Notes under the pieces: generated by a model
Database searches by the model: none
Told to the model about the DNA's origin: nothing
Seen by the model: the letters and a program-made list of their open reading frames with translations, nothing else
Part shown: piece after piece, positions 29,428-55,164 of the stretch
Layout of the letters: every line of letters starts with the position of its first letter
Numbering within the stretch: the first letter of the stretch is position 1
Source of the DNA: an uncultured Bacteroidales bacterium
Lineage (GTDB): Bacteria; Bacteroidota; Bacteroidia; Bacteroidales; Bacteroidaceae
Direction of reading: 5' to 3'
DNA length: 64,000 nt
NCBI GenBank assembly: GCA_902782245.1
Contig: CACZMI010000001.1
Coordinates: 158,472 to 222,471 of the forward strand
Program-made: the position numbers and the translations under genes

Positions 29428-31053
29428 TCAATACACAGCCTGGCGGAAGTAGTCAAAATCTGCATAACCGCCGGCCTGACCGGTACAGAAACTGTACAGA
29501 CCCGTACGGTAGCCGGTAAAGTAATCCAGACTGAAAGACATCTGCAATGTTGCATCCACGTCTGTCCAGTTCTTGCCGTCAAGAGAGTAACTCATGAACG
29601 CCTGATCGGCGCGCTCACCCTCTGCCTGAGGAGTGAACACATACTTTATCTTGAGCCATACCTTATCCTGGTTGAGCGGAATGCGCAGAGCCTCAGTATC
29701 GGGACTGGGAGCATTTTCGGCCTGAGGACCACGACGTCTGCCCATATTGCGGTGAGTCATGGCTACAAGGCTCTTTGTTCCGTCATCGGCCACTTCAACG
29801 CCTATGGTACAATAATTGCTCTGGAAGGCAATTATACCGGCTCTGTCGCCCGGTTTCATGCCGCTGGCGTCCATCAGCACCTCGCTGTAGCAACGCGGTC
29901 CTACAGTACGCTGAGTAAGGGTGTTGCGGGCGTTCATTACGTTTGTAGCCTGCTGGCCGGTCTTAAGGCGGAGCCAACCCTTGCGTTCGGTTACTGACCA
30001 TGCTGAGTTGTCAGGCTTATGGTTCCACTGCCATACTAGGTCAAGCTGGTTCTTTTTATAGTTGAACTCATCATTGTCCCATGTACGGTTCTTGCCGCTT
30101 TGGGGCAGGTTTACTGTAAACTGCTTGACAGGTTTGGTGTCATCACCCAGAATAGGCCATCCGTCAACCCACTTTACAGGCTGCAGGGTAGGAATACGTC
30201 CTACTGCGCCGTGATCCTGGAACATCATGGCGTACCAGTCACCGTTCTGGGTCTCTATGATACCGCCCTGTGCGACGCCGTCACCACGGCCGTCAAATGC
30301 ACCGCTCAGGATAACCTTGCTCTCATAGGGACCGAACAGATCCTTTGAGCGCCAGCAGGTCTCGGTGCGTACGCCACCGCTGGGCCAGTCTATCTCAAGT
30401 ATGTAGTAATAATCACCTATATGGTAGATATGGGCACCCTCGGCACGCAGATTGAATCCCTGACGCGGAGAGTCTATCAGTATCTTCTCCTCGGCACCGG
30501 CCTTGATAGCAGAGCCATCGGGCTCCAACTCAATGATGCGTATCTCTCCGTTACCCCATATTACATAGAGATGTCCGTCCTCAAACAGCATTGAAGCATC
30601 ATGGAATGAACGGTTTATCACCGAACGCTCCCAACCGCTCCTGGTTATGTCCTTGGTACGGTAGATATAGGTCTTACCCTGGTCATTGGCAATAAAAAGA
30701 GCATAATAGGTACCGTTCTCATAACGGAGCGATGTAGCCCACTGACCCTTGCCATATGCATTGCGGCCGTTACGCAGGTTATAGACATCATCATCCTCAA
30801 TATAGTCACAAACGTAACTTATTATCTCCCAATGAACCAGGTCCTTGGAGTGCATTATAGGCACACCGGGGCAGAAATACATGGTAGTACTTACCATATA
30901 ATAGTCATTACCTACACGGATCCAGTCATTATCGGGTATATCTGTGTAAGTGAGCGGGTTTACACACTCTGTGGTCTTGTCCTTTGCAGAACAACCTGAC
31001 CATGCTCCTATGAGCATGGTAAGTGTTATTGTCAGTAATGTCTTGGCTTTCAT
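29428..31053 (-). CDS. GH43 lipoprotein with C-terminal beta-sandwich (xylosidase/arabinofuranosidase)
   Basis: A 541-residue exported exo-glycosidase. The lipobox is in LIGAWSGC. The five-bladed propeller carries the three GH43 acids: the base Asp in YTDIPDNDW (about residue 40), the pKa-setting Asp in SFHDASMLF (about 150), and the acid Glu in LRAEGAHIY (about 210). Residues about 330-540 form a concanavalin-like beta-sandwich of the type found in GH43 beta-xylosidases (RTVGPRCYSEVLMD, YSLDGKNWTDV). The DNWIR and WATSLRY context suggests a GH43 subfamily 12-like enzyme. It lies 20 bp downstream of another GH43, so both are co-transcribed at the end of the locus. Confidence 0.9.
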   Translation of the reverse strand: MKAKTLLTITLTMLIGAWSGCSAKDKTTECVNPLTYTDIPDNDWIRVGNDYYMVSTTMYFCPGVPIMHSKDLVHWEIISYVCDYIEDDDVYNLRNGRNAYGKGQWATSLRYENGTYYALFIANDQGKTYIYRTKDITRSGWERSVINRSFHDASMLFEDGHLYVIWGNGEIRIIELEPDGSAIKAGAEEKILIDSPRQGFNLRAEGAHIYHIGDYYYILEIDWPSGGVRTETCWRSKDLFGPYESKVILSGAFDGRGDGVAQGGIIETQNGDWYAMMFQDHGAVGRIPTLQPVKWVDGWPILGDDTKPVKQFTVNLPQSGKNRTWDNDEFNYKKNQLDLVWQWNHKPDNSAWSVTERKGWLRLKTGQQATNVMNARNTLTQRTVGPRCYSEVLMDASGMKPGDRAGIIAFQSNYCTIGVEVADDGTKSLVAMTHRNMGRRRGPQAENAPSPDTEALRIPLNQDKVWLKIKYVFTPQAEGERADQAFMSYSLDGKNWTDVDATLQMSFSLDYFTGYRTGLYSFCTGQAGGYADFDYFRQAVY

Positions 31054-31073
31054 GTCACTTATTTTTGTTTCTG

Positions 31074-32429
31074 TTATTCAAAAGAGAGCCAGTCAACCTG
31101 GACATTTCCCTTTGATGCCAAACGCACCTTTAAGTGATGAACACCGGTAGCGGCGCCTTTGACATCGGCTACAATCTCTGATGCAGTGTTCTTGGGACTG
31201 AGCTTTACCTTTGATATCACCTTGTCATCCTGCAGGATCTCCAGTGTTCCGGTTGAGGGTGCAGCCACCTTTACCTTTACTCTCTGGGGAGCATTCTCAA
31301 AGTTTACGGTGTTGTACTTAACCCATGCGCCCTGCTCGTAGAACACGGTCTTCCAACCGGCAAAATAATTGGTTGTATCGATATAGGCGATAGAGTCACC
31401 ACTCTGGCTTATCTCTGAGTAACGGTCTATCTGTATCTCCTTATTGGCCTGGGTAACACCAATGCCGCGGAGTGAAGGCTTAACCATACGGATGCTTCCG
31501 TCCGGCTCAAAGAAGATGCTGTCTGCGCAGACTGCACGGTTCTTATCAAACTTAGGTGAGTAATCATTGTGGTGATAGAACAGATAAGTCTGGCCTTTGA
31601 ACTCTATGATTGAGTGGTGGTTGGTCCAGCACTTGTTGGCATGCTCCTCAAAGAATACACCCATGAACTTGTAAGGGCCAAAGATATTGTCGGCCATGCA
31701 ATATGCAAGAACCTCCTCTACATCACGAGCCCAGGGGAATGTCATGTAGTACTTGCCGTTATGCTTGAACAGGTAAGGACCTTCTACCAGACCCTTGGTG
31801 GGAACCTCCTCTACGCGGTGACGGTCTGCAGGATCTGTAGAAACAGAGAGCCAGTCATCATTCAACTTGGTGATTGTGATACCGGGCATAACCAGATAGG
31901 CGGTGCCGTCATCATCAACAAAGATACAGGGGTCAATACCGCCTACGCCCTCCAGAGGAGTAGCCTGAGGGATATAAGGTCCGAAAGGATTGTGGGCGAT
32001 TGCTACACCTACACGGTTACCGCCACCCATGGCACGACGGCCGTCTGCTCTGGGCTGGGGTTTGGCACCTGCGGGCCAGAAGAAATAATAATCACCGTTA
32101 TTGGGATTCTGCTTGCAGTCAGGAGCCCACATAGAATAACCTTTCTCATTAACCCAGGGTGCGGTCCACTGGTCAACTATTACGCCATGATCCTTCCAGT
32201 CAGTAAGGTTATCACTTGAGAATACATGATAGTCTGCCATGCAGAACCAGTCCTTACGGGCGTATTCATCGGGAGCGGGAATATCATGTGAAGGGAATAC
32301 ATAGACGCGGTCGCCTACAACCAGAGCCGACGGATCGGCCGAGAACTGATCACGGATGATAGGGTTCTGTGCCTGAACGGCAATGCCGGCCAGCATCAGA
32401 GCGGCCAGGAGTGAAAATCTTGCTTTCAT
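31074..32429 (-). CDS. Exported GH43 enzyme with C-terminal CBM6-like domain
   Basis: A 451-residue protein with a cleavable signal peptide (MKARFSLLAALMLAGIAVQAQ). The catalytic propeller (about 25-310) shows the base Asp in FSADPSALVVGDRVYVFPSHD, the second Asp in GGIDPCIFVDDDG and the acid Glu in LVEGPYLFKHNG. The histidines in TNHHSIIEF are typical of arabinan/xylan-active GH43. The last roughly 125 residues resemble a CBM6-type beta-sandwich (FAGWKTVFYEQGAWVKYNTVNF to VQVDWLSFE). It acts in the periplasm or outside the cell, probably on arabinoxylan- or arabinan-derived oligosaccharides. It precedes the other exported GH43 by 20 bp. Confidence 0.9.
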   Translation of the reverse strand: MKARFSLLAALMLAGIAVQAQNPIIRDQFSADPSALVVGDRVYVFPSHDIPAPDEYARKDWFCMADYHVFSSDNLTDWKDHGVIVDQWTAPWVNEKGYSMWAPDCKQNPNNGDYYFFWPAGAKPQPRADGRRAMGGGNRVGVAIAHNPFGPYIPQATPLEGVGGIDPCIFVDDDGTAYLVMPGITITKLNDDWLSVSTDPADRHRVEEVPTKGLVEGPYLFKHNGKYYMTFPWARDVEEVLAYCMADNIFGPYKFMGVFFEEHANKCWTNHHSIIEFKGQTYLFYHHNDYSPKFDKNRAVCADSIFFEPDGSIRMVKPSLRGIGVTQANKEIQIDRYSEISQSGDSIAYIDTTNYFAGWKTVFYEQGAWVKYNTVNFENAPQRVKVKVAAPSTGTLEILQDDKVISKVKLSPKNTASEIVADVKGAATGVHHLKVRLASKGNVQVDWLSFE

Positions 32430-32476
32430 CTGTTGATTATAATGAGGTTAATAATATACATATTTGGTAAGCGAGT

Positions 32477-32484: not shown

Positions 32485-32520
32485 ACCCTCTTTTGTGCAA
32501 ACCACACAACAGAGACGGCA

Positions 32521-32595: not shown

Positions 32596-35500
32596 TCACT
32601 TAAGCAGAACCTTGTCAACTACAACCTTACCGTTAACATTTGTCTTGCGGATAAGGATCTGACCAGCCTTAGGAGCTGCAACCTGTACACCACCCAGAGT
32701 GTAGTACTCAACGTTGGCGGCAACAGCCTTAGCAGGATTAACGATGGTCAGCAGACCTGCTATCTCATCCTCCAGACCCTCGACAGCCTCGTCATAAGCG
32801 AAGTCCGGATCCTGACGGAAGTGCAGGAAGAAGTTGTCGGCACGTGACCAACCGTTACCAGACCACAGAGTCAGCTTGATGTCAACTGAATCAGCGCCAC
32901 CAACCATGATGCTGTCAATCTTAAGGGTCTGAACACCATCAGTATTGGCCTGAGCCTGATATGCTGAGTCACCAGCATTTACATCCAGCAATGTAGGAGT
33001 AGCGGGATGTGCGCCCCAACCGGTAGCCTCGGGACGGAACTTGTGCTCGGGCAGTTCAACACCGATTGAATACATACCTGCAGGCAGGTCATCAACAGTC
33101 TGCCAGAGTTCTGACTTGGTGTTCCAGTCCATACCGATTTCAGCATCGAATACGGGATAACCAACAACGTAAGCATTGTAACTCTTGTCACCGGTTACCA
33201 TCTGGTTACCCTCGGTAGAAGCGAGAACTGTCCAACCGGGATATACATCAGTGTACTCAATGGTCTGGATGATGATCCAGATAGGCATCTGGCCATTCAG
33301 GCTACCACTGTTGTACTGGTGCTGTACATGCTGCATGTTGGCGCCGTCAGGATCAGCCTTGTGAGCATCACCGCTATTAGCCTTCAGGTTACCACGCTCA
33401 ACAACCTTAGGAGTCTGATACAGATGATAGTTCTTGATAAACGGAGTCAGGTCAAGGCTATCCTTTGTATAGATATTTGCATCATCGGCCAGTTTCTCAT
33501 AGAGAGCCAACTTGATAGCAGCCTTGTAGACATTGGCCAGCATATCGTCATCATCCTCCAGAGTCTGGAGAGCATTCTTGATAATAGCGGTATCACCGAT
33601 GGTTGAACCGAGCTTACGTGACAGGGCATCGAGAGCCTTTACACGCTTAGGCATAACCTCTGACTTAATAACTCTGAATTCATAAGCATCAGCGGCACCG
33701 TGAACGATAGCATAAGTAGCGTTGATGTCATCATCAGTTGCTGCGATTACATCGTAGTTCTTGTAAGATTCGTATGTTCTCTTAAGAGCGGGATACTCCT
33801 CAAATGAGATCTTTGCGCTGTCCTCAAGCAACTGGAATGCTCTGGTGAGTTCCTTAGCATACGTGGTGTTCAGGGCGATACGGTCATCCAGAGTCTGGAT
33901 AGCCTTCTTCATCGTCTCGTTGAACTCGTTGATCTCTGTACCAATCTTGGTGGTAACAGGATAAGCGTTAGCCTCGGTCTCAACGGCCTTAAGAGCAGCC
34001 CATGTTGAAAGACCACCGTACTGAGTCTCAGTAGCAGCCAGTTTATCAGATACAGCCTTTCTCTGGTTAGCAAATCCGTCAACTGTATCCATACGGAGTT
34101 TCAGTTTAGAGGTAGCATCATCAAGAGCCTTAGAGGCAGCAGCCCACTCAGAAGGCTTGGTAGGCTTGGTAGACTCAAATCCACCGTCTACATCGTAGTA
34201 AACAACAGATGTCTTAAGGTTGTTGAGTAACACACCTGAATAGAGTTCAGTCTTGGCCTCAGCTAAAGCGATACGCTCCTTGGCAGCAATTACAGAATTG
34301 TTAAGATTCTTTACCGGAGTGTAATAAGAAGGTACAAAGAATCCAGGTGTAGTGACGCTCAAATCACTTACAAGAACTCCGTGCCAGTTATTATTACCAG
34401 AATTGGTGATTTCGAACTCAAATACATAGTTACCGGCAGTTGCGATTTCAAGAGGTATGGAAATATAGTCTGCTGTATTGATACGCAAATCCTTGTTCTT
34501 ACCATCATTGCTTGAAATCATGTTGGTCGGAGTGATTGTATCAAGAGGTATCCTGTCAGGATCGGTAACCAGATCAGCATTGCCTTCGGGTTTTGCAAAC
34601 ATGAACACCTTGGTCTCAGCCTTGCCGTCCCAACCCAAAATGTAGAAGTTGAGTTCATACTGACCTGCATCCAAACGGATGTTCTGATTACCAACACCTA
34701 CCCACAGATGACCACCATTGGACGATCCACGAGGACTAATATAGAATCCGCGTGCGAACTGTGATTCAGGATTGTTGTATACATACAAACGCATACCATT
34801 GCTGGAGAGCTTGCCTCCGGTTCCAAGTGTATATTCCTTATGAGTATCCTCCTTGATAGCAGTACCTACAGGAACTTCATCCTGACCGTTAGTGCTCCAG
34901 GTGGTCTCAAATGCCTTCTCAGGAAGGCTTCTGCTGTAATCGCCGAAGTGGTAGTTCAACTTGACATCCTTACCGTATTCTGTACCCAGACCCTTGAGCT
35001 GAACGAGCTCAAATTCAACATCACCGTTAAGAGCCGGTGCTGAGTTGGGCTTTGTAATAACAACGATAGAGTCATTGCCCTCCTTATAAGAGAAGTTCCA
35101 TCTGGTACCGTTTACATAAGCGATAGCACCTGTAGTATTCTCCAGGTTGTCAAATACAATCTTACGTGAGAACTTGAACTCGAGGCTGGTTACAGGGGTA
35201 AGACCGAATGAATTCTCCTCGTAGGGCAGTCCCTGCAGAACAGGAGGCAGATCCTTCATTGAGTGAACACCCTTGAAGATGTTGGGGTTAGGAGTAGCAA
35301 GCTCATTGTAGAAGTCAGGAACTAACTTACCTTCCTTGATCCATGTGGTATCAAGAGCCTTGGGGAACAACTCTGCTGCGCTCTTACCTGTACCTGTGTA
35401 CTTAAGGGCAAGCTTAGGATTGTCAACGGGGTTGAGGAAAGTTACGAGAACCTGATCATAGTCATCGAACATGAACGGGGTATCATTAAAATACTCGGTG

Positions 35501-36738
35501 AACATATACATGTAACCGTCGCTGTGATACTCGGCTGAACGGATAGGCATATCCTCCCAATCATCAGGATCGTCAGGATCACCGCCCTTTGTAAGGCACC
35601 ATACCTCGAATGCGTCACCGGGAAGTTCGATAGCGTCGATACGGGTCTCCTTATATGCGTCCTCTACCAGTTTGCCAAGGTTGGTCTTGTAACCGAAGTC
35701 TACACGCATCTTATCCTTATCATACTCGCAACCTGCAATCCATGACTTGGTAAGAGAGATGTTATCAACCATGAAGTCTGTTGAGTCAGAACGGAAAGAC
35801 ATACGGAAGAAGAACTTATCCGGCTGATGGATGAACTTGAGATCTTCCTCAGTGCCGTTGTCAGCAGCCTTCCAGGTCCAGCTATCTGACCACCAGTAAC
35901 CACTTGAAAGCATGTAGTAATCAGCGATTGAGTCATTCAGATAGTAATCCATGAAGGTTACCTTCTCCCAATCACCTGAAAACTCAGTCTTCTCATAAGT
36001 GATCTCTGTTTTGAACTTGTTATGGTCGTTATCATCCTCCATACCCATTGTGAAAGGCTTCTCTGAATGGAAATAACCACGGTACAGACCGGCATGCAGA
36101 CGAGGTGAATAACCTGATGAAGCTGTGGTTGATTTAGCCTTTACATAGAATGTAACACGGTAAGAGGTCTCGGGCTCGATAACGTTCTTAAGACGTACAA
36201 ACAGGTTACGGCGATAGTCGTCAGTGTACTTGTTGTCACTGCTTCCTACTGCAGATGTACCATCAGCGTTGTAACGTCCTGCTGAAACGAAATGGAAGGC
36301 CTTTTCACCACCGTCCTGTCCCCACTTCTCAAATGCCTCGGCACGAGCCTGTGTGTTCTCTGTAACGATAGCATAGTCATCGTTGCGATACTTTCTATTA
36401 TCAATATCAGCCTTGTCGTCGGTAAGCATTACACCGTTGTAGATAATGATACCGCCCTCCTTTCCGGGGGTTACAGAGTCTGTTCTGACAAGAATATTGT
36501 CAGCTTTGAATCTGGCATCATTCCAGGCTCCGGAGAACGCCTGATTTCCACCTGTTATGCCCTTGTAGTACTCCAGTTTGTAGATGGTATCTACAGGAGT
36601 ATTCTGCCATGCATCCCAGTCATCCTCAAAGGTCTGCGTAAAGATGACTTTAGCATCCTGCGGAGTTCTGGTAGGCTGTGCAATTGCGGAGACTCCCATA
36701 AGGAGCAGTCCTGCAAATAATAAGTCTCGTTTTTTCAT
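32596..36738 (-). CDS. 1380-residue secreted protein of unknown function in the polysaccharide locus
   Basis: I do not recognise this protein as a whole. It has a signal peptide (MKKRDLLFAGLLLMGVSAIAQ) with no lipobox. The N-terminal third contains beta-rich segments resembling carbohydrate-binding modules (SYRVTFYVKAKS and MRLYVYNNPESQFARGFYISPRG regions), with an Ig-like part at about 500-650. Residues about 830-1130 are strongly helical and charged (AAKERIALAEAKTELY, ALDDATSKLKLRMD). Another beta-domain follows. The last 40 residues (EYYTLGGVQVAAPKAGQILI, then basic) resemble the short C-terminal tail found on many secreted Bacteroidales proteins. Position directly after SusD-2 is where surface glycan-binding proteins sit, so such a role is inferred. 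Confidence 0.7.
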   Translation of the reverse strand: MKKRDLLFAGLLLMGVSAIAQPTRTPQDAKVIFTQTFEDDWDAWQNTPVDTIYKLEYYKGITGGNQAFSGAWNDARFKADNILVRTDSVTPGKEGGIIIYNGVMLTDDKADIDNRKYRNDDYAIVTENTQARAEAFEKWGQDGGEKAFHFVSAGRYNADGTSAVGSSDNKYTDDYRRNLFVRLKNVIEPETSYRVTFYVKAKSTTASSGYSPRLHAGLYRGYFHSEKPFTMGMEDDNDHNKFKTEITYEKTEFSGDWEKVTFMDYYLNDSIADYYMLSSGYWWSDSWTWKAADNGTEEDLKFIHQPDKFFFRMSFRSDSTDFMVDNISLTKSWIAGCEYDKDKMRVDFGYKTNLGKLVEDAYKETRIDAIELPGDAFEVWCLTKGGDPDDPDDWEDMPIRSAEYHSDGYMYMFTEYFNDTPFMFDDYDQVLVTFLNPVDNPKLALKYTGTGKSAAELFPKALDTTWIKEGKLVPDFYNELATPNPNIFKGVHSMKDLPPVLQGLPYEENSFGLTPVTSLEFKFSRKIVFDNLENTTGAIAYVNGTRWNFSYKEGNDSIVVITKPNSAPALNGDVEFELVQLKGLGTEYGKDVKLNYHFGDYSRSLPEKAFETTWSTNGQDEVPVGTAIKEDTHKEYTLGTGGKLSSNGMRLYVYNNPESQFARGFYISPRGSSNGGHLWVGVGNQNIRLDAGQYELNFYILGWDGKAETKVFMFAKPEGNADLVTDPDRIPLDTITPTNMISSNDGKNKDLRINTADYISIPLEIATAGNYVFEFEITNSGNNNWHGVLVSDLSVTTPGFFVPSYYTPVKNLNNSVIAAKERIALAEAKTELYSGVLLNNLKTSVVYYDVDGGFESTKPTKPSEWAAASKALDDATSKLKLRMDTVDGFANQRKAVSDKLAATETQYGGLSTWAALKAVETEANAYPVTTKIGTEINEFNETMKKAIQTLDDRIALNTTYAKELTRAFQLLEDSAKISFEEYPALKRTYESYKNYDVIAATDDDINATYAIVHGAADAYEFRVIKSEVMPKRVKALDALSRKLGSTIGDTAIIKNALQTLEDDDDMLANVYKAAIKLALYEKLADDANIYTKDSLDLTPFIKNYHLYQTPKVVERGNLKANSGDAHKADPDGANMQHVQHQYNSGSLNGQMPIWIIIQTIEYTDVYPGWTVLASTEGNQMVTGDKSYNAYVVGYPVFDAEIGMDWNTKSELWQTVDDLPAGMYSIGVELPEHKFRPEATGWGAHPATPTLLDVNAGDSAYQAQANTDGVQTLKIDSIMVGGADSVDIKLTLWSGNGWSRADNFFLHFRQDPDFAYDEAVEGLEDEIAGLLTIVNPAKAVAANVEYYTLGGVQVAAPKAGQILIRKTNVNGKVVVDKVLLK

Positions 36739-36873: not shown

Positions 36874-36879
36874 GTTAAA

Positions 36880-38847
36880 TCATTCTGTTGCCTGTTTTTC
36901 GTCAGGAAGAACCAGGAACCATGCCTTGTTGAGGCTCTTGCCGTCACCAAGCAGTTTGGTGTAGAGTTCCGTATCCATATCCCTGTAGAAATCCACATTG
37001 TCGTCCATAACTGCCTTGTCACGTGCTGCAACGCGTCTTGCCAGGAAATCATTCTCTGCAAAACCGCCGTAACCGGGAGAACTGGGATCTGCTGCACGGT
37101 GCATTGCAATACGCATCAGATCACCAAAACGGTATCCCTCAAAGCAGGTCTCAAGGGCCATCTCATCAATAAGTCTCAACTCTACCGCACGGATTGAATC
37201 CTCAAGAGTGGGAACGCGTCCGCCCAAGGTATCAACCGGGATGGTGTAGTTGGGATCAAACTCTGCATCACCGCAGCCACGTGAATGGATACCGATGGTG
37301 TTTCCGAATGATGTATTCCACTCTGCGCAGTAGACCTCCTGAGTTGATCCGCCAGTCCTCAGAGTCTGATAATTCCATGTGATGGAAGACTTCTGGAATG
37401 ACCTTCTGGGGAAGCTATAAACAGCACTGATATCCACACCGTCCACATTGGTGGCTCTGGTCTTTTCTACCTGACTCAAACTGTCAATGGTCTCCTCGCA
37501 AAGACCGCTCTTAAGCACTGCAAATGCCGTCTGGGGCAGTCCACAGCGATTGAGTGCCTCTGCAAGCCTCAAATATACGACGTCCTTACGATATAACCAA
37601 ATTTTCTCTGAATTAATTTTATTTAACGTTTGATAATCGGTACCGTAGTTGGAAGAGTTGTTGTCGTCATCGTCATAGTAGACCTCAGAGTTCTCCATTA
37701 CAGAGCCCAGTCTCAAGTCACCGCGATACAGGATCTCTTCCTCGGCGTTCTTATCAGGTATATACTCGGGCCACTCAAAACGGTTTGAAGGATTACGTTT
37801 TGCATGATAGCAATAATTCTGTCTTACACTGATGGCAGTGGCGGCCTTTGAGCGTGTGAGCTGATACCAGTAGTAATTGTCCTCCGTTGAGCAGAAGATA
37901 TTCTCAAGGTCACTTACCTCACCACTGTACTTATCGGCCTCCATAGGAATATATGTTATATGGCCGTTGTTTCCGAATATGGTTCCTACATAACGGTCGG
38001 AACCCATGTTGAGAAAGTCATATGTCAGCCACATCACGGTATTGTTTCCGGTAGTAACGGCACGGTTGTCGCCTGCCAGGAAATCATGATAGTACAATGC
38101 TGCATGTGCATAATCCTCGGCCCAGAGGCAAAGGTCACCCAGGATAAGGCGGATGGGGATGAACAGGTCTTTTGACTCGTGCTGTGTGGTCTTGGAACCG
38201 TCACCCAGAGTCTCGCCACCCAGTTTGCCGTAGTTGGGCTGATAGCGGTCATAATATGAAATGAACTCATCCTTGAAGTCAAGCAACAGAGTCTTGGCAA
38301 GGTCCTTGATGTTCATCTTGACACCGCTGGCGGCATTGTCGCCGGTAATGGGTTTGTCAAAATAGGGAACCTGGCCGTAAATCTGAGCCAACTGCAGGTA
38401 AGCCCATGCCCTGTAGCAGAGCATGGTGATATACTCACCCTTCATTACCTGCTTCTGATTACGGGTAAATGTGGTATCCACCTTATTTATAAAGAAGTTG
38501 CAGTTGTTGATTATTGCATAGTAATCAACAGCCTGGTCATACTTGTTTGTGGATTTGACCGAACCGAAATCATAGGAGTAGAGTTCACGGAGATCCTCAG
38601 ATGCATGATCGGATATGGTAACCAGGTCACCGCGAATCTCACCCAGTATCACTGTACGGTCCGCAATTTTCTGCAGGTTTTTGATTACTCCCAGTACTGA
38701 ATATACAGTATCTACGGGTGAATCCAAGGTGTTCTGATAATCGAACATGTAGGTCTTGGAATCAACCTTGAGAATATCCTCGCATGATGTTACTCCGGCT
38801 ACAAGAGTTGTAGCCAGAGCAATGGAAAATATGGTTTTCAGTTTCAT
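36880..38847 (-). CDS. SusD/RagB-like glycan-binding lipoprotein 2
   Basis: A 655-residue outer membrane lipoprotein (signal MKLKTIFSIALATTLVAGVTSC). The N-terminal SusD region (DILKVDSKTYMF, then helical TPR-like repeats with YRAWAYLQLAQIYGQVPYF at about 145-165) and the C-terminal half with WLYRKDVVYLRLAEALNRCG and the conserved ELRLIDEMALETCFEGYRF block are typical of RagB/SusD. It caps the SusC-2 barrel encoded 11 bp upstream and delivers glycan fragments to it. At 655 residues it is longer than the usual 500-600. A hairpin and the large secreted protein follow. Confidence 0.92.
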   Translation of the reverse strand: MKLKTIFSIALATTLVAGVTSCEDILKVDSKTYMFDYQNTLDSPVDTVYSVLGVIKNLQKIADRTVILGEIRGDLVTISDHASEDLRELYSYDFGSVKSTNKYDQAVDYYAIINNCNFFINKVDTTFTRNQKQVMKGEYITMLCYRAWAYLQLAQIYGQVPYFDKPITGDNAASGVKMNIKDLAKTLLLDFKDEFISYYDRYQPNYGKLGGETLGDGSKTTQHESKDLFIPIRLILGDLCLWAEDYAHAALYYHDFLAGDNRAVTTGNNTVMWLTYDFLNMGSDRYVGTIFGNNGHITYIPMEADKYSGEVSDLENIFCSTEDNYYWYQLTRSKAATAISVRQNYCYHAKRNPSNRFEWPEYIPDKNAEEEILYRGDLRLGSVMENSEVYYDDDDNNSSNYGTDYQTLNKINSEKIWLYRKDVVYLRLAEALNRCGLPQTAFAVLKSGLCEETIDSLSQVEKTRATNVDGVDISAVYSFPRRSFQKSSITWNYQTLRTGGSTQEVYCAEWNTSFGNTIGIHSRGCGDAEFDPNYTIPVDTLGGRVPTLEDSIRAVELRLIDEMALETCFEGYRFGDLMRIAMHRAADPSSPGYGGFAENDFLARRVAARDKAVMDDNVDFYRDMDTELYTKLLGDGKSLNKAWFLVLPDEKQATE

Positions 38848-38858
38848 AATACCCTATA

Positions 38859-42041: not shown

Positions 42042-42057
42042 ATCTTATATATTTTTT

Positions 42058-43740: not shown

Positions 43741-43778
43741 ATCATTAATTAATTAATATTTCATTAGTTAGGGTTATA

Positions 43779-47533: not shown

Positions 47534-47553
47534 ATTATCCTTAATCTTAAGAG

Positions 47554-50500
47554 TTAGAAATTAACATTAACACCGAATGTTACTCTGCGTGAGCGCGGGG
47601 TACGGCTGTTATCGGCAGCAACCTGGCCACGACCGGAACTAACCTCGGGATCCAGACCTGTATACTTGGTCCAGGTTGCAAGGTTACTCAAACTGCAGTT
47701 GAAACTTACACCACTCAGATGAACCTTCTTGGTGATCTTGGGATCAAGAGAGTAACTCAGGGTGCTGGAGCCCCAACGTATGAATGAACCGTCTTCTACG
47801 AAACGATCTGAACCCAGGTCGTTGTAACCCCACTGGTAAATAGTACGCGGAACTTCGGTCACATCACCCTCAACGCGCCAGCGCCAGTTGATGGCTGCCA
47901 TCACGTTACGGATCTCACGTGTGCTCTCGGCACCCAGACGTGACATGTTCACGATCTTGTTACCTCCGCGGAAGTTGAAACTGTTACTCCATGAGAGACG
48001 TCCCCAAGACATACGCAGGCTGCAACCACCGTTGATCTTAGGAAGTGAACTACCCAGGTAAACGATATCAAGTTCGTTGATATTACCGTCATTGTTGATA
48101 TCCTCATATGCTACATCACCGCCTACAAACTCGTAAGGAGTTGTCAGAGTTCCGTAACCGAACATCATAGGTTTGGTCTTACCCTTCGAGTTGAGGATTA
48201 CATTGCCATCGGCATCCTTTACTACAGGAGCGTTAGGACCGCTTACGCCGGGAACCTCAACTTCACTGTAGTCACTGTACTGATAAACGCCTTTATACTT
48301 GAAACCGTAGATAGAACCGTAGGAGTTCTTAAGTGCCACGTATGAAAGGTATGAACGGTGGGCATTGTCAAAGTCAAAGTCTTTCTGCCAGCTCTTAAGA
48401 ATGATTTCATTCATCTCAAGCACCTGGTTGGTGTTGTCACCGAAGTTGATGCTACCGCCAACGTTGAAATCCTTGCCTGCCAGTCTTGTTGAATAGATAC
48501 GGTTAGCAGAGATACTCATATCCCAACCTTCGTTCATCATCTTACCGTCGTTAACAGCACCGAGTGATGTGAAACCGGATGATGAAGGAATAGGATAGTT
48601 ACTGTTGATCAGCTTGTCATTGGTAGTATGATAGAAGTTGATGCTTGCATTCAACTTATCATCGAACAGACCTAACTGAAGACCGAAGTTCCACTGAGTT
48701 GACTCCTCCCACTGGAAATCGCTAAGACGGATGTTGGCGGGATAGATTGTGGAGATACCCATATAGGAATCACCGGATGAATAACGGCTGCGGAACATAT
48801 CGTCACCGCCCGGAGCATTACCTGTGAAACCCCAACTCATTGTGAAGCCGGCCATTGTAAGCAGACCGCTCTCACGGATAGCGTCAAACCACTTCTCATC
48901 AGTGATGTTCCAACGTGCTGAAGCGGCAGGGAATGTACCCCACTTCTTGGCATTACCTGTTCTGGTGGTACCATCTGAACGGGTAGTGAATGTTAATGAG
49001 TACTTACTCTTATATGAGTAGTGCAACTGAGTTGTAATACCTACACTGCGGTTACGGCTTGCACCTGTGCTCATGCCGGTGATACGGCCGGGCAGACCGG
49101 GTGATTTGAAAGGACCTGAAGGAAGGCCGCCTACACCGGTACTCATGCTCTTACCGTTACTGTTGTTCACAGTCATTCTGGCCATAGCCTGGAAACTGTG
49201 GTTACGGTTCTTGATATGCGGCTGGAACGTGAGTGAGTGCTGGGTATTGATCTGTGAGTTCTTGTTTGAACTTGTAGAGGTAGAGTTGGCGTTCTGGTCA
49301 GACCAACCGTCACGAGACAGGGTCTGAGGAGTGTAGTTCTCGCTACTGCTGTTAGACACGCCGAATGTTACCTGACCCTCATATCTGAGTCGGGTCTGAT
49401 CGTTTTCAAGTCCCAACAGATTATAGGTGATGCGGAAATCGGGGTTTACATTCAGACTGATGCTGTTGCTCTCCTTCTCGGCAGCCTCCAGAACGGGGTT
49501 GTTCTGCTTGGGCAGATCTGACGATGAAGATGAAGGCATCAGGTAATACTCACCGGTGGGTTCACCTGTAAGAGGATCCTCATAGTAGATGGCCAGGTTA
49601 GGCATCATCTCCTGAGCACTGCTTACAGCGGCGCTACCGCTACGACGGTTGTTTGAGTATGACATTGAGAAGTTTGTAGAAACCCTGATACGCTCTGAAA
49701 CGAAGTAGTCAAAGTTTACACGTGTTGTGAAACGGTTCATCTTCTGACCGATTACGGTACCTGTCTCATCATCGAAACCGGCCGAAATACGGAACTGAGC
49801 CTTATCACCACCACCTGATACTGACAGGTTATGTGACTGAGAGATACCTACCTTCTTTACAGCCGATACCCAATCGGTATTGTCATTCCACATCTCATAC
49901 TCAGGTCTGGTCTGAACGTAGTTGATCTCCCAGATTGAGTTGGTACGTGAATCGTCCAGATGCGGGTTGAAGAGTGACTCCTTAACGAACATTGTGTACT
50001 GGTCACCGTTAAGATACTTATAACCCTCAGGCTGGAAGTTGGCGTTGAGACGATATGAGTAGTTTACACGGGTGGCACCGCGCGCTCCGCGCTTGGTCTT
50101 GATTTCCATAACACCGTTGGCACCGCGCATACCCCAGATGGCTGTAGCAGCGGCATCCTTAAGGAATGATATTGACTGGATATCGGCGGGGTTGATACTC
50201 AACAACTCGGCCAGACGATCCTGCTCAGGACTGTTACCGTTAAGAATACTACCGCCCAGATCCTGGTTGATCATCTCAGTGGTCATGTTCATGGTGTTCT
50301 CATCGATTGACAGGATATTACCGTCAATAACGATAAGCGGGTTACCGTCACCGGTCAGAGTTGACTGACCACGCAGACGCATTGTTGAACGTGAACCAAG
50401 GTCACCTGAGTCGAACACGATGTCAAGTCCTGCAACCTGACCCTGAAGAGCCTCATCGACTGTGGTTATACCGAGATCGGCGAAATCATCCATATTAATG

Positions 50501-50913
50501 GTCTGAACCACGGATGATGCCTCACGCAGAGGAATCTGAAGACCGGTGGTCTCCTGGTAGCGCTCGGCTGTAATCTCAACCTCAGGAATCTCACCTGCTT
50601 CCTTCATCATAATCTCAAAGTAGGTCTTGTTGATAGGAATATCAACAGTCTCATAACCTACGTATGTAACCTGAAGGTGGTCATTGGGATTGACCAGACG
50701 GAAAGAGAAGTTACCTTCCATATCGGTGATGTCGTGAGCCACGATACGGTCAGCGGCATCTCTTTCAGTTACATTCACCATCATCATAGGGCCTTCTGCG
50801 TCTTCAATGACACCACTGATGACATCGCCGGCCTTCTGTGCCTGAAGCAAACCGGGCATTACGGCCAGAACAGCGGCCATCGCCCATCTAAAAAATCTGT
50901 TAGTATATTTCAT
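47554..50913 (-). CDS. SusC/RagA-like TonB-dependent transporter 1
   Basis: A 1119-residue outer membrane transporter with signal peptide (ending LLQAQ), carboxypeptidase-regulatory-like domain (about 30-110; GVIEDAEGPMMMVNV, GNFSFRLV), plug domain with TVDEALQGQVAGLDIV, STMRLRGQST, LIVIDGNIL and FLKDAAATAIWGMRGANGV, and a large barrel ending FGVNVNF. The TonB-dependent SusC hallmark motifs are all present. It follows the four-repeat FAS1 gene and precedes SusD-1 by 20 bp. The Gln/Ser-rich loops (PSSSSSDLPKQ, NSTSTSSNKNSQINTQ) are long surface loops of the barrel. The glycan is inferred, from the linked GH43 enzymes, to contain arabinose or xylose. Confidence 0.95.
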   Translation of the reverse strand: MKYTNRFFRWAMAAVLAVMPGLLQAQKAGDVISGVIEDAEGPMMMVNVTERDAADRIVAHDITDMEGNFSFRLVNPNDHLQVTYVGYETVDIPINKTYFEIMMKEAGEIPEVEITAERYQETTGLQIPLREASSVVQTINMDDFADLGITTVDEALQGQVAGLDIVFDSGDLGSRSTMRLRGQSTLTGDGNPLIVIDGNILSIDENTMNMTTEMINQDLGGSILNGNSPEQDRLAELLSINPADIQSISFLKDAAATAIWGMRGANGVMEIKTKRGARGATRVNYSYRLNANFQPEGYKYLNGDQYTMFVKESLFNPHLDDSRTNSIWEINYVQTRPEYEMWNDNTDWVSAVKKVGISQSHNLSVSGGGDKAQFRISAGFDDETGTVIGQKMNRFTTRVNFDYFVSERIRVSTNFSMSYSNNRRSGSAAVSSAQEMMPNLAIYYEDPLTGEPTGEYYLMPSSSSSDLPKQNNPVLEAAEKESNSISLNVNPDFRITYNLLGLENDQTRLRYEGQVTFGVSNSSSENYTPQTLSRDGWSDQNANSTSTSSNKNSQINTQHSLTFQPHIKNRNHSFQAMARMTVNNSNGKSMSTGVGGLPSGPFKSPGLPGRITGMSTGASRNRSVGITTQLHYSYKSKYSLTFTTRSDGTTRTGNAKKWGTFPAASARWNITDEKWFDAIRESGLLTMAGFTMSWGFTGNAPGGDDMFRSRYSSGDSYMGISTIYPANIRLSDFQWEESTQWNFGLQLGLFDDKLNASINFYHTTNDKLINSNYPIPSSSGFTSLGAVNDGKMMNEGWDMSISANRIYSTRLAGKDFNVGGSINFGDNTNQVLEMNEIILKSWQKDFDFDNAHRSYLSYVALKNSYGSIYGFKYKGVYQYSDYSEVEVPGVSGPNAPVVKDADGNVILNSKGKTKPMMFGYGTLTTPYEFVGGDVAYEDINNDGNINELDIVYLGSSLPKINGGCSLRMSWGRLSWSNSFNFRGGNKIVNMSRLGAESTREIRNVMAAINWRWRVEGDVTEVPRTIYQWGYNDLGSDRFVEDGSFIRWGSSTLSYSLDPKITKKVHLSGVSFNCSLSNLATWTKYTGLDPEVSSGRGQVAADNSRTPRSRRVTFGVNVNF

Positions 50914-50931
50914 TTCCTCTATGTTTGCTTA

Positions 50932-53900
50932 TTAGAAAATCATGTCACCGTTACACAACGGTTCATCAATCAGATGAACAACCGCATAAGATGAAGTCTC
51001 GATAGAGAAAGTAGTATATGTACCTTCTGAGAGAGTTGAGCCGGACAACGGCTTGACTTCATACTCACGGCACATAATGTTGTAATACGGTTTGCCCGAA
51101 GCAGTAGAAATTTTCTGAACCTGACGGGTATGTCCGTTCTTGTCCGAAACGGTAATGTCGGCACCACCCTTTACGGAGAGTTTTACGAACTGCTGGTTAG
51201 CATTCATGAAAGCTGTCTCATACTCAGCAATGGTGGCGGGATTACCATGCTCGTCAACACCGGCATTGAAATCGGCACCGATATACACTGAGTTATCCTG
51301 GATGTGGTACTTGACAAAGTTCTGGAGCTGAGCGAGTTTCTTTCTTGTAAAGTACTTGGCATTTGTATTGTTGGCAACTGCTGCCTTGGCTCCGACCGTA
51401 TCAGCAACACCGAACAGCTGCTGTGACAGTACAATAAGTGAATCTGTAAACATTGCATTCACTGCGCTGTCCTTGCTCTGTGCGGGACCGGTATAATCAT
51501 CCTCAATATCAAGCTTGAGCAACTCATACTCATTCTCTATAGCCTGGAGTTTCTCGGGCCACATGAGTTTTCCGCTTGCGAACAGAGCGTCAACACCTGC
51601 GTTCTTGGGGATGTAAACGGTATAGTGATATGTATTGAAAGTAGAGATACACTTGGCAGAACCTATGTCGTTGGTGTTTGACTTGTCTGCGAATATATCG
51701 GCAGCTTTCATAACCTTGAAGAAGGATGTGAACTCGGGATATGTAATTGTATCTGAAACTATGTCATATACGGATTTTCTTGAAGGCATGAGCGGACGGT
51801 CAATGATATAGGTACGTCCGTTACCGGGAGTAAGTGATGTCTTCTTGGACAAGTCAACACGCTGAAGAATCTTGACCGGTCTCTCAATCTCATCACCCAT
51901 ACCCTGGTGCTCGATCTGCCAGCCGCCCTGTACACTCATGGTTGTTACATCGCCGAATGCACCGGTATTCTTGAACCTTACGGTTCCGCGGCCCTTGGTT
52001 CTGAAATATGAGTAACCGAATTCATCCTGTACTGAAGCGTCCTCCACATCACCTATTATAATATGGTAATCCATGATGTCGAGCAGACGGTTGCGGACGA
52101 ACTTGGCATCGTCATTATCTCTGGTCTCATTATTCACAGTGACAACATCAGGAATGAGCTGGTCACCGGTGGCGACGAATGTTCCGAGAGTGTCATCATA
52201 ATCATATACATCGGCCAGGACCTTATCCTCATTCTTGGTGTTCTTGCCGTAACTGAAAGCAAGAGCCTTGAGTGAGTAACCCTCCTTCTGCAGATAGAAT
52301 GAAGCGGGATCGATCCAAACCAGCTTGTTCTTGAACTCAGGAAGCGGAGTTCCAACAGTATCGATCAGGGGTACGAAGAAACTGTACTCTGATACCATTG
52401 AGTTCAGGTAAGCCTTGTATGCCAATACCTCATCAGTACGGATGGCCCAGTCAATAATCTTGAGTTTCTCATTTACAAGAACAGGATATGCAACTGACTT
52501 GTAAGCTGTAGGAACATATACGTTTGTAGTGAAATAAACGGCACCGTTGCAGCACATTACAACATCTGAAATTGTTGACTCGGCCTCCTCACGGCTCTTG
52601 TTCTCAAAGAAAGGATCCTGTGCATCGTTGAGCACGCTTGAGAACTTACTGGGAACTGAACCGATCAGAGAAGACTGCATGTTCACGTTGACAAGTTCAA
52701 GGATAACGCTCATAGGAATCTGACCCATATCCTTTATAACCTCATCAACGGTAAGGTCATTGCGACCCTTGAACTCTTCAAGTCCGTAACGGGCTCTCAG
52801 ACGGGCACCGACCTGGCTCTCATCAAGCCACCACTGCTTGAGGGCGTCATCCAGAGGAACGAACATAAGGCCCATATCTTTCTGGAGGGCTACATCAGTG
52901 TTGCTGCCTATAGTAGATGAGATAAAGCTGTTCCATCCCGGATCGAACTTGAGAAGGTTGTCAGTGGGAGCCATCTGATCCAGATTGGTCTTCTGGGCCT
53001 CGGACTCGGTACGTGATCCGATTCTGGCACGCTTGGACAGATACTTCTTTACAAATACAGAGTCTGTATTGGCATCCATAGCCTCCTTGAGGGCAGGATT
53101 GGTAACAAGACCTGAATTGATAAGCATTCTGACGTTAACATCCCTCTCCTGCTTGGCGGCACCTGAATAATAAGGTACTGCGAAACGCTCCAGAATAGAA
53201 CTGTAAATTCTGGCGTTGGGGTTTGAAGCGATATAATCGGCCATGTTAGGCAGCAGATATACTACATCTGACATAACATGGAGGAATCCGTTGAAGCACT
53301 TCTTGTTGGGCCATGCGATAGTTACACCGTTCACGCTGGCATCACCCGGCTTGTGGGCAGGTCTGATGTTGTTGGGACGGCTGTACTTACCCAGACGGAA
53401 CAGGAAGTCGTAATCATCCCTGTCTATCTTGTTTGACTCCAGGAACTTGTTTACGAAGAATATGATAGGCTTGTTGGTTCCATCCTGCAGAAGTACGATA
53501 CCCTTGTCGCTCTTGTTGCGGAGACGGTCCCAGTAAGCGTTGTTCTTGGGCATGTCTTCGGGCTTTACAACCGGGATGGTATCCAGTACCTGTGCGGCAG
53601 ATACCCTACGCATACAGTTGCCAAGAATAGGAGGTGACTGCTCACCGCCGGGGCTACTGGAAAGCATGGCTACCTGATACACGTTATTGAGCATCGAACC
53701 GTTCAGAATCATAGATTTCTGAGCCTTGCTGAGCTGCTCATAACTTGTAATCTTGTTACCGTTGGCATCTACAAACGGGCAATCCTTGAAGAAACGCTCG
53801 AATGCCTTGTCATCGGCTACGAACAGGGTCTTACTACCGGTCTTGGCCAGGATGTTGACCTGATCCATATCCTCAATAAGCCTGATGAATGTTTTGAATG

Positions 53901-54108
53901 AGTACTCCTCGCCGGTGCTGTCATTCCTGAAGCCTTCGCTAAGGGTCTCATAGATACTGGTACCAAGCCATTCCGGCATTCTCTTGTCAAGGTCAAAATC
54001 CGGACGGCATGACTGCATACCGAACGCTGTGGCCAAGACGGTCAGAATTGCACCGAACAACCTGGAACGGTTAGTTAGGGATTTGAGTCTTTTCATTATA
54101 TGAGTCAT
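50932..54108 (-). CDS. Large fasciclin lipoprotein with about four FAS1-like repeats
   Basis: A 1058-residue protein (1054 if the inner ATG, MKRLKSLTN, is used) with a lipoprotein signal ending FGMQSC. FAS1-like units begin around YSFKTFIRLIEDMDQVNILA (about 68), NSFISSTIGSNTDVALQKDM (about 395), EVLAYKAYLNSMVSEYSFFV (about 555) and YPEFTSFFKVMKAADIFAD (about 800). Typical FAS1 strands such as SKTLFVADDKAFERFF, MFVPLDDALKQWW and YTVYIPKNAGVDALF are present. It is the second gene of the locus, 22 bp after the cytoplasmic GH43 and 19 bp before SusC-1. A long, multi-domain surface fibre or binding platform is a reasonable inference. Function is unknown. Confidence 0.8.
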   Translation of the reverse strand: MTHIMKRLKSLTNRSRLFGAILTVLATAFGMQSCRPDFDLDKRMPEWLGTSIYETLSEGFRNDSTGEEYSFKTFIRLIEDMDQVNILAKTGSKTLFVADDKAFERFFKDCPFVDANGNKITSYEQLSKAQKSMILNGSMLNNVYQVAMLSSSPGGEQSPPILGNCMRRVSAAQVLDTIPVVKPEDMPKNNAYWDRLRNKSDKGIVLLQDGTNKPIIFFVNKFLESNKIDRDDYDFLFRLGKYSRPNNIRPAHKPGDASVNGVTIAWPNKKCFNGFLHVMSDVVYLLPNMADYIASNPNARIYSSILERFAVPYYSGAAKQERDVNVRMLINSGLVTNPALKEAMDANTDSVFVKKYLSKRARIGSRTESEAQKTNLDQMAPTDNLLKFDPGWNSFISSTIGSNTDVALQKDMGLMFVPLDDALKQWWLDESQVGARLRARYGLEEFKGRNDLTVDEVIKDMGQIPMSVILELVNVNMQSSLIGSVPSKFSSVLNDAQDPFFENKSREEAESTISDVVMCCNGAVYFTTNVYVPTAYKSVAYPVLVNEKLKIIDWAIRTDEVLAYKAYLNSMVSEYSFFVPLIDTVGTPLPEFKNKLVWIDPASFYLQKEGYSLKALAFSYGKNTKNEDKVLADVYDYDDTLGTFVATGDQLIPDVVTVNNETRDNDDAKFVRNRLLDIMDYHIIIGDVEDASVQDEFGYSYFRTKGRGTVRFKNTGAFGDVTTMSVQGGWQIEHQGMGDEIERPVKILQRVDLSKKTSLTPGNGRTYIIDRPLMPSRKSVYDIVSDTITYPEFTSFFKVMKAADIFADKSNTNDIGSAKCISTFNTYHYTVYIPKNAGVDALFASGKLMWPEKLQAIENEYELLKLDIEDDYTGPAQSKDSAVNAMFTDSLIVLSQQLFGVADTVGAKAAVANNTNAKYFTRKKLAQLQNFVKYHIQDNSVYIGADFNAGVDEHGNPATIAEYETAFMNANQQFVKLSVKGGADITVSDKNGHTRQVQKISTASGKPYYNIMCREYEVKPLSGSTLSEGTYTTFSIETSSYAVVHLIDEPLCNGDMIF

Positions 54109-54129
54109 TTAAATATTAGACATAGGAGA

Positions 54130-55164
54130 TTATTCCTTATCAATACCCTCGATGGTCTTGATGTGACCCTGGGCATCGTATTCTATCTCGCAGACCTTAA
54201 GGCTGCGGAGCCATGACTTGCCGCCTGAAGGCACACTGTCATGATGGAACAGATACCACTTGCCTTTGTACTCAATGATTGAGTGGTGGGTTGTCCAACC
54301 TACGACGGGAGTCAGGATGACACCCTGGTAAGTGAAGGGACCATAGGGATTGTCACCGGTTGCATAGCACAGCAGATGGCTGTCACCGGTTGAATATGAG
54401 AAATAATATTTGCCTTTGTATTTGTGCATCCAGGATGCCTCGAAGAAGCGATGGGGATCATCGGCCTTAAGGGGATTACCCTTCTCGTCAACTACCAGGA
54501 TGGGACGCGGAGCCTCTGCAAAATTCAGACCGTCCTTGGTCAGGCGTACGCAGCGGCTGGGCAGTGCATCCTCCTTACCCTCGGGAAGATACGGAGTCTC
54601 CAGATGGATATTGTCCTTGTAACGCTGCAGCTGGCCTCCCCACAGACCGCCGAAGTATACGTAAACCTCACCGTCTGCATCGTCACGGAAAGCGCACATA
54701 TCGATGCTGTAGCTACCGGGTACGGGTGCGGGATTGGGGATGAACGGCCCCTCGGGACGCTGGGCGATGGCTGTACCCCAATGGAAAACGTCATTGCGGT
54801 CCTTCATCGGGAAGTACATGATGTAACGCTTGATTTTTTTGCTGAATCCCATTCCCTGAGACTGTTCCTCTGCGTTGGTGGGAACCTCGATTTCATACTC
54901 CTGAACGTCGCAGTCCCAAAGCTGGCGGCCGGCCCATGGAATATCTTCCAGACCTATTACCTTGCCGTGGTCAACTACCTGACCGTTCATGATGTCATCA
55001 GTGGAAAGGACGTGATAATCTTTCATGACGTACTGGTCGCCGTTGTCATTCTCGACATTCTCGCACTCCCAGTCATGTGAAGGATAGATGTAAACTCGTC
55101 CGTTGAATACGTGTACAGAGGGGTCTGCCATGTAATCAGCGGGAAAAAGATAACGCTTCTTCAT
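54130..55164 (-). CDS. GH43 family enzyme without a signal peptide
   Basis: A 344-residue single-domain five-bladed propeller. The three acids are visible: Asp in MADPSVHVFNGRVYIYPSHD (about residue 14), Asp in YSIDMCAFRDDADG (about 155) and Glu in RFFEASWMHKYKGK (about 240). TTHHSIIEYKGKWYLFHHD near the end is typical of arabinoxylan/arabinan-active GH43. The N-terminus MKKRYLFPADYMAD goes straight into the catalytic domain, so the enzyme stays in the cytoplasm and probably trims imported oligosaccharides to monosaccharides. It is the first gene of the locus, with a promoter about 45 nt upstream. Confidence 0.9.
   Translation of the reverse strand: MKKRYLFPADYMADPSVHVFNGRVYIYPSHDWECENVENDNGDQYVMKDYHVLSTDDIMNGQVVDHGKVIGLEDIPWAGRQLWDCDVQEYEIEVPTNAEEQSQGMGFSKKIKRYIMYFPMKDRNDVFHWGTAIAQRPEGPFIPNPAPVPGSYSIDMCAFRDDADGEVYVYFGGLWGGQLQRYKDNIHLETPYLPEGKEDALPSRCVRLTKDGLNFAEAPRPILVVDEKGNPLKADDPHRFFEASWMHKYKGKYYFSYSTGDSHLLCYATGDNPYGPFTYQGVILTPVVGWTTHHSIIEYKGKWYLFHHDSVPSGGKSWLRSLKVCEIEYDAQGHIKTIEGIDKE

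What the first reader, a model, noticed from the sequence alone, without database searches (positions are those of the whole stretch)
29428..55164. Polysaccharide locus with two SusCD pairs interleaved with three fasciclin lipoproteins
The gene order is GH43, FAS1 (four units), SusC, SusD, FAS1, FAS1, SusC, SusD, large secreted protein, GH43, GH43. FAS1 lipoproteins take the places normally held by SusE/F-like binding proteins, and one is translationally coupled to SusD-1 by a 4-bp overlap. This suggests a surface glycan-capture apparatus built on FAS1 domains for an arabinose- or xylose-containing glycan. FAS1 proteins are better known for adhesion, so a glycan-binding function would be worth testing.
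Basis: partly seen in the sequence, partly recalled or inferred. Interest (0 to 1): 0.72.

Follow-up and report, generated by a model that had tools for sequence, protein, structure and literature searches.

The report
Conserved double-transporter cassette with fasciclin lipoproteins
This gut-type bacterium carries a seven-gene set (two nutrient importers and three fasciclin lipoproteins) that is kept in nearly the same order in many related bacterial families; it is probably a surface machine for taking up plant cell-wall sugars, but that function has not been tested.

Summary
Seven consecutive genes (FAS1-A, SusC1, SusD1, FAS1-B, FAS1-C, SusC2, SusD2) form a conserved cassette: exact in 42 of the 80 genome-contig loci kept, cut or split in 8 more; the other 30 are solitary FAS1-B homologues. 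In 26 further stretches with room upstream (nine other families of the order, other orders, one other genus) the same set recurs, with FAS1-B displaced or not seen in six and FAS1-A moved in one. The seven genes diverge in step; SusC1 and SusC2 are each one clade. Flanking genes vary; many are xylan or pectin enzymes. Predicted structures give FAS1-B and FAS1-C two FAS1 domains plus a beta-sandwich; the best non-FAS1 matches are carbohydrate-binding modules. So glycan binding is plausible, more likely through that module than through FAS1. Local enzymes suggest arabinoxylan. The claimed 4-bp coupling needs an unlikely TTG start, and only two of four FAS1 units of FAS1-A are supported. Eight searches of the held paper library found no description of the cassette. 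Binding and complex formation are untested.

The parts
54130..55164 (-). GH43 enzyme, first gene of the run, no signal peptide visible; outside the conserved seven
   Evidence: PF04616 E 2.3e-12; a relative stands before FAS1-A in 8 of the 80 named loci
50932..54108 (-). FAS1-A, 1058-residue putative lipoprotein; FAS1 units at both ends
   Evidence: PF02469 5.1e-11; hhalign units 1 and 4; conserved place before SusC1
47554..50913 (-). SusC1, TonB-dependent outer-membrane transporter
   Evidence: TIGR04056 1.4e-185; one clade across families
45791..47533 (-). SusD1, lid lipoprotein
   Evidence: PF07980 1.1e-16, PF14322 1.5e-11
43779..45794 (-). FAS1-B: putative lipoprotein with two FAS1 domains and a C-terminal beta-sandwich; likely start is the ATG 2 nt after the SusD1 stop, not the TTG
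   Evidence: PF02469 8.8e-15; model pLDDT 89.7; Foldseek; start site
42058..43740 (-). FAS1-C: putative lipoprotein with two FAS1 domains and a different C-terminal beta-sandwich
   Evidence: PF02469 5.1e-6; model pLDDT 83.9; Foldseek
38859..42041 (-). SusC2, second TonB-dependent transporter
   Evidence: TIGR04056 1.8e-157; own clade
36880..38847 (-). SusD2, second lid lipoprotein
   Evidence: PF14322 5.3e-7, PF07980 1.1e-5
32596..36738 (-). large secreted protein of unknown family
   Evidence: no Pfam or PDB-sequence match; relatives after SusD2 in several close loci
31074..32429 (-). GH43 with CBM6
   Evidence: PF04616 4.6e-40, PF03422 1.1e-8
29428..31053 (-). GH43 with beta-xylosidase C-terminal domain
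   Evidence: PF04616 1.2e-34, PF17851 3.7e-38
25247..27535 (+). solitary FAS1-B-type protein, outside the finding, next to a GH8 gene
   Evidence: PF02469 1.5e-9; full-length relative of FAS1-B, 38% identity

Best explanation
The seven genes at 36880-54108 encode one conserved outer-membrane uptake module: two SusC barrels, each with its SusD lid, plus three surface lipoproteins built on FAS1 domains. In FAS1-B and FAS1-C the two FAS1 domains act as membrane-anchored spacers or docking parts, and the C-terminal carbohydrate-binding-like beta-sandwich captures a plant cell-wall glycan; pieces cut by nearby enzymes enter through the two transporters. FAS1-A is probably a scaffold. The module is combined with different enzymes in different genomes; here with three GH43 enzymes, which points to arabinoxylan or a related arabinose/xylose glycan. 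Shown: gene content, order, wide conservation, divergence in step, lipobox-like motifs, predicted folds. Inferred: surface exposure, glycan binding, spacer role of FAS1, complex formation, substrate.
For: Exact seven-gene order in 42 of 80 loci and 8 cut or split; 26 further stretches in nine other families of the order, other orders and one other genus. Pairwise identities of the seven genes correlate at 0.87-0.96 over 903 pairs; SusC1 and SusC2 each one clade, support 1.0 and 0.98, 19 sequences each. Lipobox-like motifs in 42-44 of 45 copies. AlphaFold models of good confidence; best non-FAS1 Foldseek match for both is 7ehg, a xanthan-binding module, E 4e-5 and 1e-5, then CBM35 and, for FAS1-C, CBM22 and CBM4 among others. 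Flanking enzymes: GH43 in 10 and GH67 in 5 of 46 upstream proteins; GH115, GH30, GH98, GH28 and rhamnogalacturonan lyases among 97 downstream proteins.
Against: No binding or transport data. Foldseek printed no residue ranges, and other beta-sandwich proteins (insecticidal Cry toxins, laminin, virus capsids) also match. The two C-terminal parts are not alike in sequence, and that of FAS1-C also occurs in four BspA-type leucine-rich-repeat proteins, not in enzymes. The C-terminal part is about as conserved as the FAS1 parts, which does not single it out. FAS1-B is displaced or not seen in 6 of 19 order-level cassettes, and 30 of 80 loci hold FAS1-B alone. Of ten genes beside solitary FAS1-B genes, four are glycoside hydrolases or phosphorylases and one glucuronate isomerase; five are unrelated to glycan breakdown. 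GH115 is not enriched near FAS1-C and GH67 only weakly.
Confidence: 0.55

Rival explanations
1. The FAS1 domains themselves bind the glycan and replace SusE/F.
For: FAS1 domains are present in three proteins of every exact cassette; place in the operon fits.
Against: The FAS1 parts match known FAS1 structures such as TGFBIp and periostin, best known for protein contacts and adhesion (recalled); a separate module with a carbohydrate-binding-like fold follows in FAS1-B and FAS1-C.
Confidence: 0.15
2. The FAS1 lipoproteins are adhesion or structural parts that hold the two SusCD pairs or the cell surface together and bind no glycan; the C-terminal modules bind protein.
For: FAS1 fold; the FAS1-C module also sits on BspA-type leucine-rich-repeat surface proteins; fixed gene set despite changing enzymes; similar conservation of all domains.
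Against: Best non-FAS1 fold matches are carbohydrate-binding modules; tight linkage to nutrient transporters and frequent glycan enzymes nearby.
Confidence: 0.2
3. The module imports something other than plant glycans, such as peptides or glycopeptides, as RagAB does.
For: SusC/SusD-type pairs can import peptides (RagAB; recalled); some neighbours scanned are housekeeping genes.
Against: GH43, GH67, GH115, GH30, GH98, pectin lyases and acetylesterases recur beside the cassettes.
Confidence: 0.1

Closest known systems
Levan and dextran utilisomes of Bacteroides thetaiotaomicron (PMC7618045, passages seen)
   Same: SusC and SusD with extra surface lipoproteins; the levan glycan-binding protein also has three domains with the mobile glycan-binding part at the C-terminus.
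   Different: One SusCD pair there, two here; no FAS1 domains are mentioned in the passages seen; a complex has not been shown here.
Xus xylan system of Prevotella bryantii, xusABCD (PMC8002723, passages seen)
   Same: Two SusC/SusD-type pairs in one locus, xylan as likely substrate.
   Different: FAS1 genes stand before and between the pairs here; the passages seen name none in Xus (gene order of Xus is recalled).
SusE/SusF-type surface glycan-binding proteins
   Same: Lipoprotein genes next to SusD, repeated N-terminal domains and a beta-sandwich.
   Different: FAS1 domains instead of the usual Ig-like ones (recalled); binding not shown.
DUF1735 proteins proposed as membrane-bound spacers in PULs (PMC11216935, search listing)
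   Same: A domain common in PULs proposed as spacer.
   Different: A different domain; only title and start of abstract seen.
[quoted passage not shown]
   Same: FAS1 fold.
   Different: Bacterial lipoproteins with an added C-terminal module, linked to transporters.

Membership tests
SusCD-type polysaccharide utilization locus | adjacent susC- and susD-type genes | tested here: met
   two pairs, TIGR04056 and SusD Pfam families
SusCD-type polysaccharide utilization locus | glycan-active enzymes in the same run | tested here: met
   three GH43 genes
SusCD-type polysaccharide utilization locus | induction by the target glycan | not testable with these tools
   needs expression data
FAS1 (fasciclin) domain family | FAS1 domain above the Pfam cut-off | tested here: met
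   43.3, 55.4 and 27.1 bits against a cut-off of 22
FAS1 (fasciclin) domain family | four FAS1 units in FAS1-A | tested here: inconclusive
   units 1 and 4 supported, 2 and 3 not
Surface glycan-binding protein (SusE/F-like) | lipoprotein encoded next to susD | tested here: met
   FAS1-B follows SusD1; lipobox-like motifs
Surface glycan-binding protein (SusE/F-like) | carbohydrate-binding-type C-terminal domain | tested here: inconclusive
   Foldseek matches to carbohydrate-binding modules without printed ranges
Surface glycan-binding protein (SusE/F-like) | glycan binding | not testable with these tools
   needs purified protein
Xus-type tandem SusCD | two SusCD pairs in one locus | tested here: met
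Xus-type tandem SusCD | pairs directly adjacent, without FAS1 genes between them (order recalled) | tested here: not met
   two FAS1 genes lie between the pairs
Utilisome | stable complex of SusCD with surface lipoproteins | not testable with these tools
   no multi-chain prediction or experiment available

The most novel reading that the evidence does not exclude
The cassette encodes a single large complex in which two different SusCD transporters, fed by FAS1-based glycan-capture arms, work side by side on different products of one plant glycan: an old dual-transporter utilisome that is kept as a fixed unit while the enzymes around it change.
Probability: 0.3. Interest if true: 0.8.

Novelty: new variant of a known kind. 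Interest (0 to 1): 0.62.

Why it matters
PULs are usually read as one SusCD pair plus variable helpers. Here two transporters and three helpers are kept together over families and orders while the enzymes around them change, which suggests that the surface machinery is a fixed unit that can be joined to different degradation kits. It also gives FAS1, known mainly from adhesion, a place in nutrient uptake that can be tested with a few purified proteins from named strains that carry the exact cassette (Paraprevotella xylaniphila YIT 11841, Xylanibacter muris, Hallella seregens ATCC 51272).

Tried and rejected
Pairwise BLAST of FAS1-B with FAS1-C and of FAS1-C with FAS1-A gave no useful alignment. 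PDB sequence searches found only FAS1-type proteins for FAS1-B, nothing for FAS1-C or the large protein, and for FAS1-A mostly ankyrin-type chance hits. Rfam at gathering thresholds found three tRNAs only, so no known leader RNA. Promoter scan: 45 sites, 31.4 expected (sd 6.2), not interpretable for this phylum; terminator-like sites 14, 14.0 expected.

I hoped that the C-terminal module of FAS1-C, found without FAS1 in four other proteins of the genus, would sit on enzymes; it sits on BspA-type leucine-rich-repeat proteins. That speaks for a mobile surface module, not for glycan binding as such.

I considered that the cassette is specific for uronic-acid-bearing glycans (GH67, GH115, rhamnogalacturonan lyases, glucuronate isomerase beside a solitary FAS1-B). 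Within 15 kb of FAS1-C lie 5 of 46 GH67 genes (1.04 expected; three of the five genomes are of genus g23 and two of g20, so not independent), 3 of 101 GH115 genes (2.5 expected) and 0 of 41 GH97 control genes (0.95 expected). Kept as a hint only. The lists for FAS1-C, GH115 and GH97 were cut by the tool at 150 rows; GH67 was complete at 75. The expected values assume a 2.9-Mb genome for all.

Origin of the two SusCD pairs by duplication is undecided: the four SusC paralogues do not resolve it (midpoint root). Per-domain conservation does not single out the C-terminal module.

The distant stretches were chosen by strong FAS1-C hits, so cassettes without FAS1-C cannot be seen, and at most 3 candidates per genome were scored. 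The phylum search with the FAS1-A profile missed G601 and G644, which do carry the cassette, so its low count is not evidence of absence. Overlap counts use the first start codon and overstate overlaps. In alignment mode Pfam prints only the 25 commonest families.

Full report
What is there. The window lies in a 2.5-Mb draft genome (98 contigs); the nearest named records are MAGs from sheep, water buffalo, red deer and horse. On the minus strand from 55164 to 29428 run eleven genes: GH43, FAS1-A, SusC1, SusD1, FAS1-B, FAS1-C, SusC2, SusD2, a 1380-residue secreted protein, GH43-CBM6, and GH43 with a beta-xylosidase C-terminal domain. An ECF sigma factor gene (28785-29375) follows on the same strand, and a fourth FAS1 protein (25247-27535, +) lies after a GH8 gene and an FGGY-family sugar kinase gene. 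Only six SusC genes of this genome (85.7% complete) pass the family cut-off, and two of them are here.

Two details of the finding do not hold. The 4-bp overlap of SusD1 and FAS1-B assumes a TTG start; an ATG two bases after the SusD1 stop is the likelier start. FAS1-A has FAS1 units at its two ends by profile comparison; the two middle units are not supported.

Conservation. In 42 of the 80 the seven genes FAS1-A, SusC1, SusD1, FAS1-B, FAS1-C, SusC2, SusD2 stand in that exact order on one strand; 8 more are cut by contig ends or have one gene split; 30 are FAS1-B homologues with no SusCD, FAS1-A or FAS1-C match in the stretch held. The exact ones include Hallella seregens ATCC 51272, Xylanibacter muris and Paraprevotella xylaniphila YIT 11841.

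Beyond the family, FAS1-C was searched in 393 genomes of the order (47 with a match at E 1e-3, 34 of 207 genera), and 20 stretches around strong hits were read: 19 from nine other families and one second copy in a genome of another genus of this family. FAS1-C is followed by SusC2 in 20 of 20. Of the 19 with room upstream, SusC1-SusD1 precede in 19; FAS1-A comes before SusC1 in 18 and lies after SusD2 in the other; FAS1-B sits between SusD1 and FAS1-C in 13, elsewhere in the stretch in 4, and is not seen in 2. In the class search (395 genomes, 93 with a match at 1e-10, most rows being single FAS1 domains) long matches also came from five genomes of other orders. Seven stretches (six from these five genomes, one from G179 of this order) show the same order in 7 of 7; one ends before SusD2, and in two the FAS1-C gene was recognised by the broader profile, not by the family profile. 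In the genus, FAS1-C at E 1e-100 or better is in 34 of 37 genomes, own included; in the family, at 1e-60, in 80 of 151 genomes and 14 of 30 genera, up to seven matches per genome. Six genus stretches read all show the cassette, one without FAS1-B between SusD1 and FAS1-C and one cut within SusC1. A search of 296 genomes of the phylum with the FAS1-A profile found only this genome and one of another order at 1e-20, but it missed two genomes that carry the cassette, so it says little about absence.

Pairwise identities of the seven genes among the cassettes correlate at 0.87-0.96 over 903 pairs. In a tree of 38 cassette SusC and four SusC paralogues of this genome, SusC1 (19 sequences) and SusC2 (19) are each one clade, support 1.0 and 0.98, and in both the other-order sequences (with that of G179) split from the rest. 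The simplest reading is that the set was assembled once and has been passed on as a unit.

Anatomy of the FAS1 proteins. AlphaFold models (pLDDT 89.7 and 83.9) give FAS1-B and FAS1-C a helix-and-strand N-terminal part and a strand-rich C-terminal part; profile comparison supports two FAS1 domains in each. Foldseek against the PDB lists TGFBIp, periostin and fasciclin I first; the best match outside FAS1 is 7ehg for both (E 4.2e-5 and 1.2e-5), and CBM35 and other beta-sandwich proteins follow, among them insecticidal toxin domains, laminin and capsid proteins. A review names 7ehg as MiXBM of a xanthan lyase and puts the modules of that enzyme in CBM84 (PMC10881899, passages). Foldseek printed no ranges, so placing these matches in the C-terminal part is an inference from the secondary structure. 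The two C-terminal parts are not alike in sequence; both have conserved aromatic residues; neither is clearly more or less conserved than the FAS1 parts. Lipobox-like motifs are in 42-44 of 45 copies of each of FAS1-A, FAS1-B, FAS1-C, SusD1 and SusD2, and an acidic residue follows the cysteine within six positions in 31 of 42 to 37 of 42 of them, which recalls the surface-export signal of Bacteroides (recalled, not tested).

Neighbours and substrate. Pfam scans of 143 flanking proteins in alignment mode (56, 41 and 46) and of chosen ones gave GH43, GH67, GH115, GH30, GH98, GH28, arabinofuranosidases, rhamnogalacturonan lyases, acetylesterases and two-component regulators, but also housekeeping genes such as ATP synthase, Hsp70 and UvrB-type proteins. 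PMC8002723 names GH30, GH43, GH98, GH95 and GH115 for glucuronoarabinoxylan (passage). The window has three GH43 genes and, further off, GH8, GH95 in two pieces and an arabinofuranosidase-like gene. Arabinoxylan is the best guess here. In 151 family genomes GH67 lies near FAS1-C a little more often than chance, GH115 does not, and the GH97 control does not. Of ten genes beside solitary FAS1-B homologues, five act on glycans or uronates and five do not.

Mechanism. By comparison with the levan and dextran utilisomes (PMC7618045, passages) I propose that the FAS1 pairs are spacers or docking parts, that the C-terminal modules catch the glycan, and that the two SusCD pairs import the products. 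Gene content, order, conservation and predicted folds are shown; the rest is inference. FAS1-A was not modelled.

Prior knowledge. Eight full-text searches on FAS1/fasciclin with SusC, SusD, PULs, Prevotella or Bacteroidetes terms showed no description of such a cassette; the listings show 20 of 208, 20 of 5,801 and 15 of 59 papers. The one paper that holds fasciclin, SusC and SusD together has fasciclin once, in its reference list (PMC10199937, passages). The library lacks most subscription journals, so this does not prove that the cassette is undescribed.

Verdict. It is a new variant of a known kind: a conserved double-SusCD uptake module with FAS1-based lipoproteins.

Noticed in passing
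window 25247-27535 (+): A fourth FAS1 protein of the FAS1-B type, outside the finding, directly after a GH8 gene; solitary FAS1-B homologues are common in the genus (30 of 80 loci).
   Followed up: partly
window 18351-20045 and 20038-20736 (+): A GH95 gene read as two overlapping pieces whose domain matches join end to end: a frameshift, real or from assembly. Not mended.
   Followed up: no
window 28785-29375 and 27644-28459 (-): An ECF sigma factor gene close behind the last GH43, followed by a small secreted protein with a glutamine- and glycine-rich tail and no Pfam hit.
   Followed up: no
window 55288-55453 (-): Two strong terminator-like hairpins between tRNA-Gln and the first GH43; total number of such sites in the region equals chance.
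   Followed up: no
L178:3563-9163, L179:6827-9763, L180:514-2634, L181:1166-4555: The C-terminal module of FAS1-C occurs without FAS1 in four BspA-type leucine-rich-repeat proteins of the genus.
   Followed up: partly
L044:8485-9885: Glucuronate isomerase gene directly before a solitary FAS1-B homologue; genes of the same length stand there in several other loci.
   Followed up: no
L183:1127-3709 and L188:5521-8004: CotH kinase-type proteins with lamin-tail domains near the cassette in two genus genomes.
   Followed up: no
window 32596-36738 (-): The 1380-residue secreted protein after SusD2 has no known domain, yet relatives stand at the same place in several close loci.
   Followed up: no
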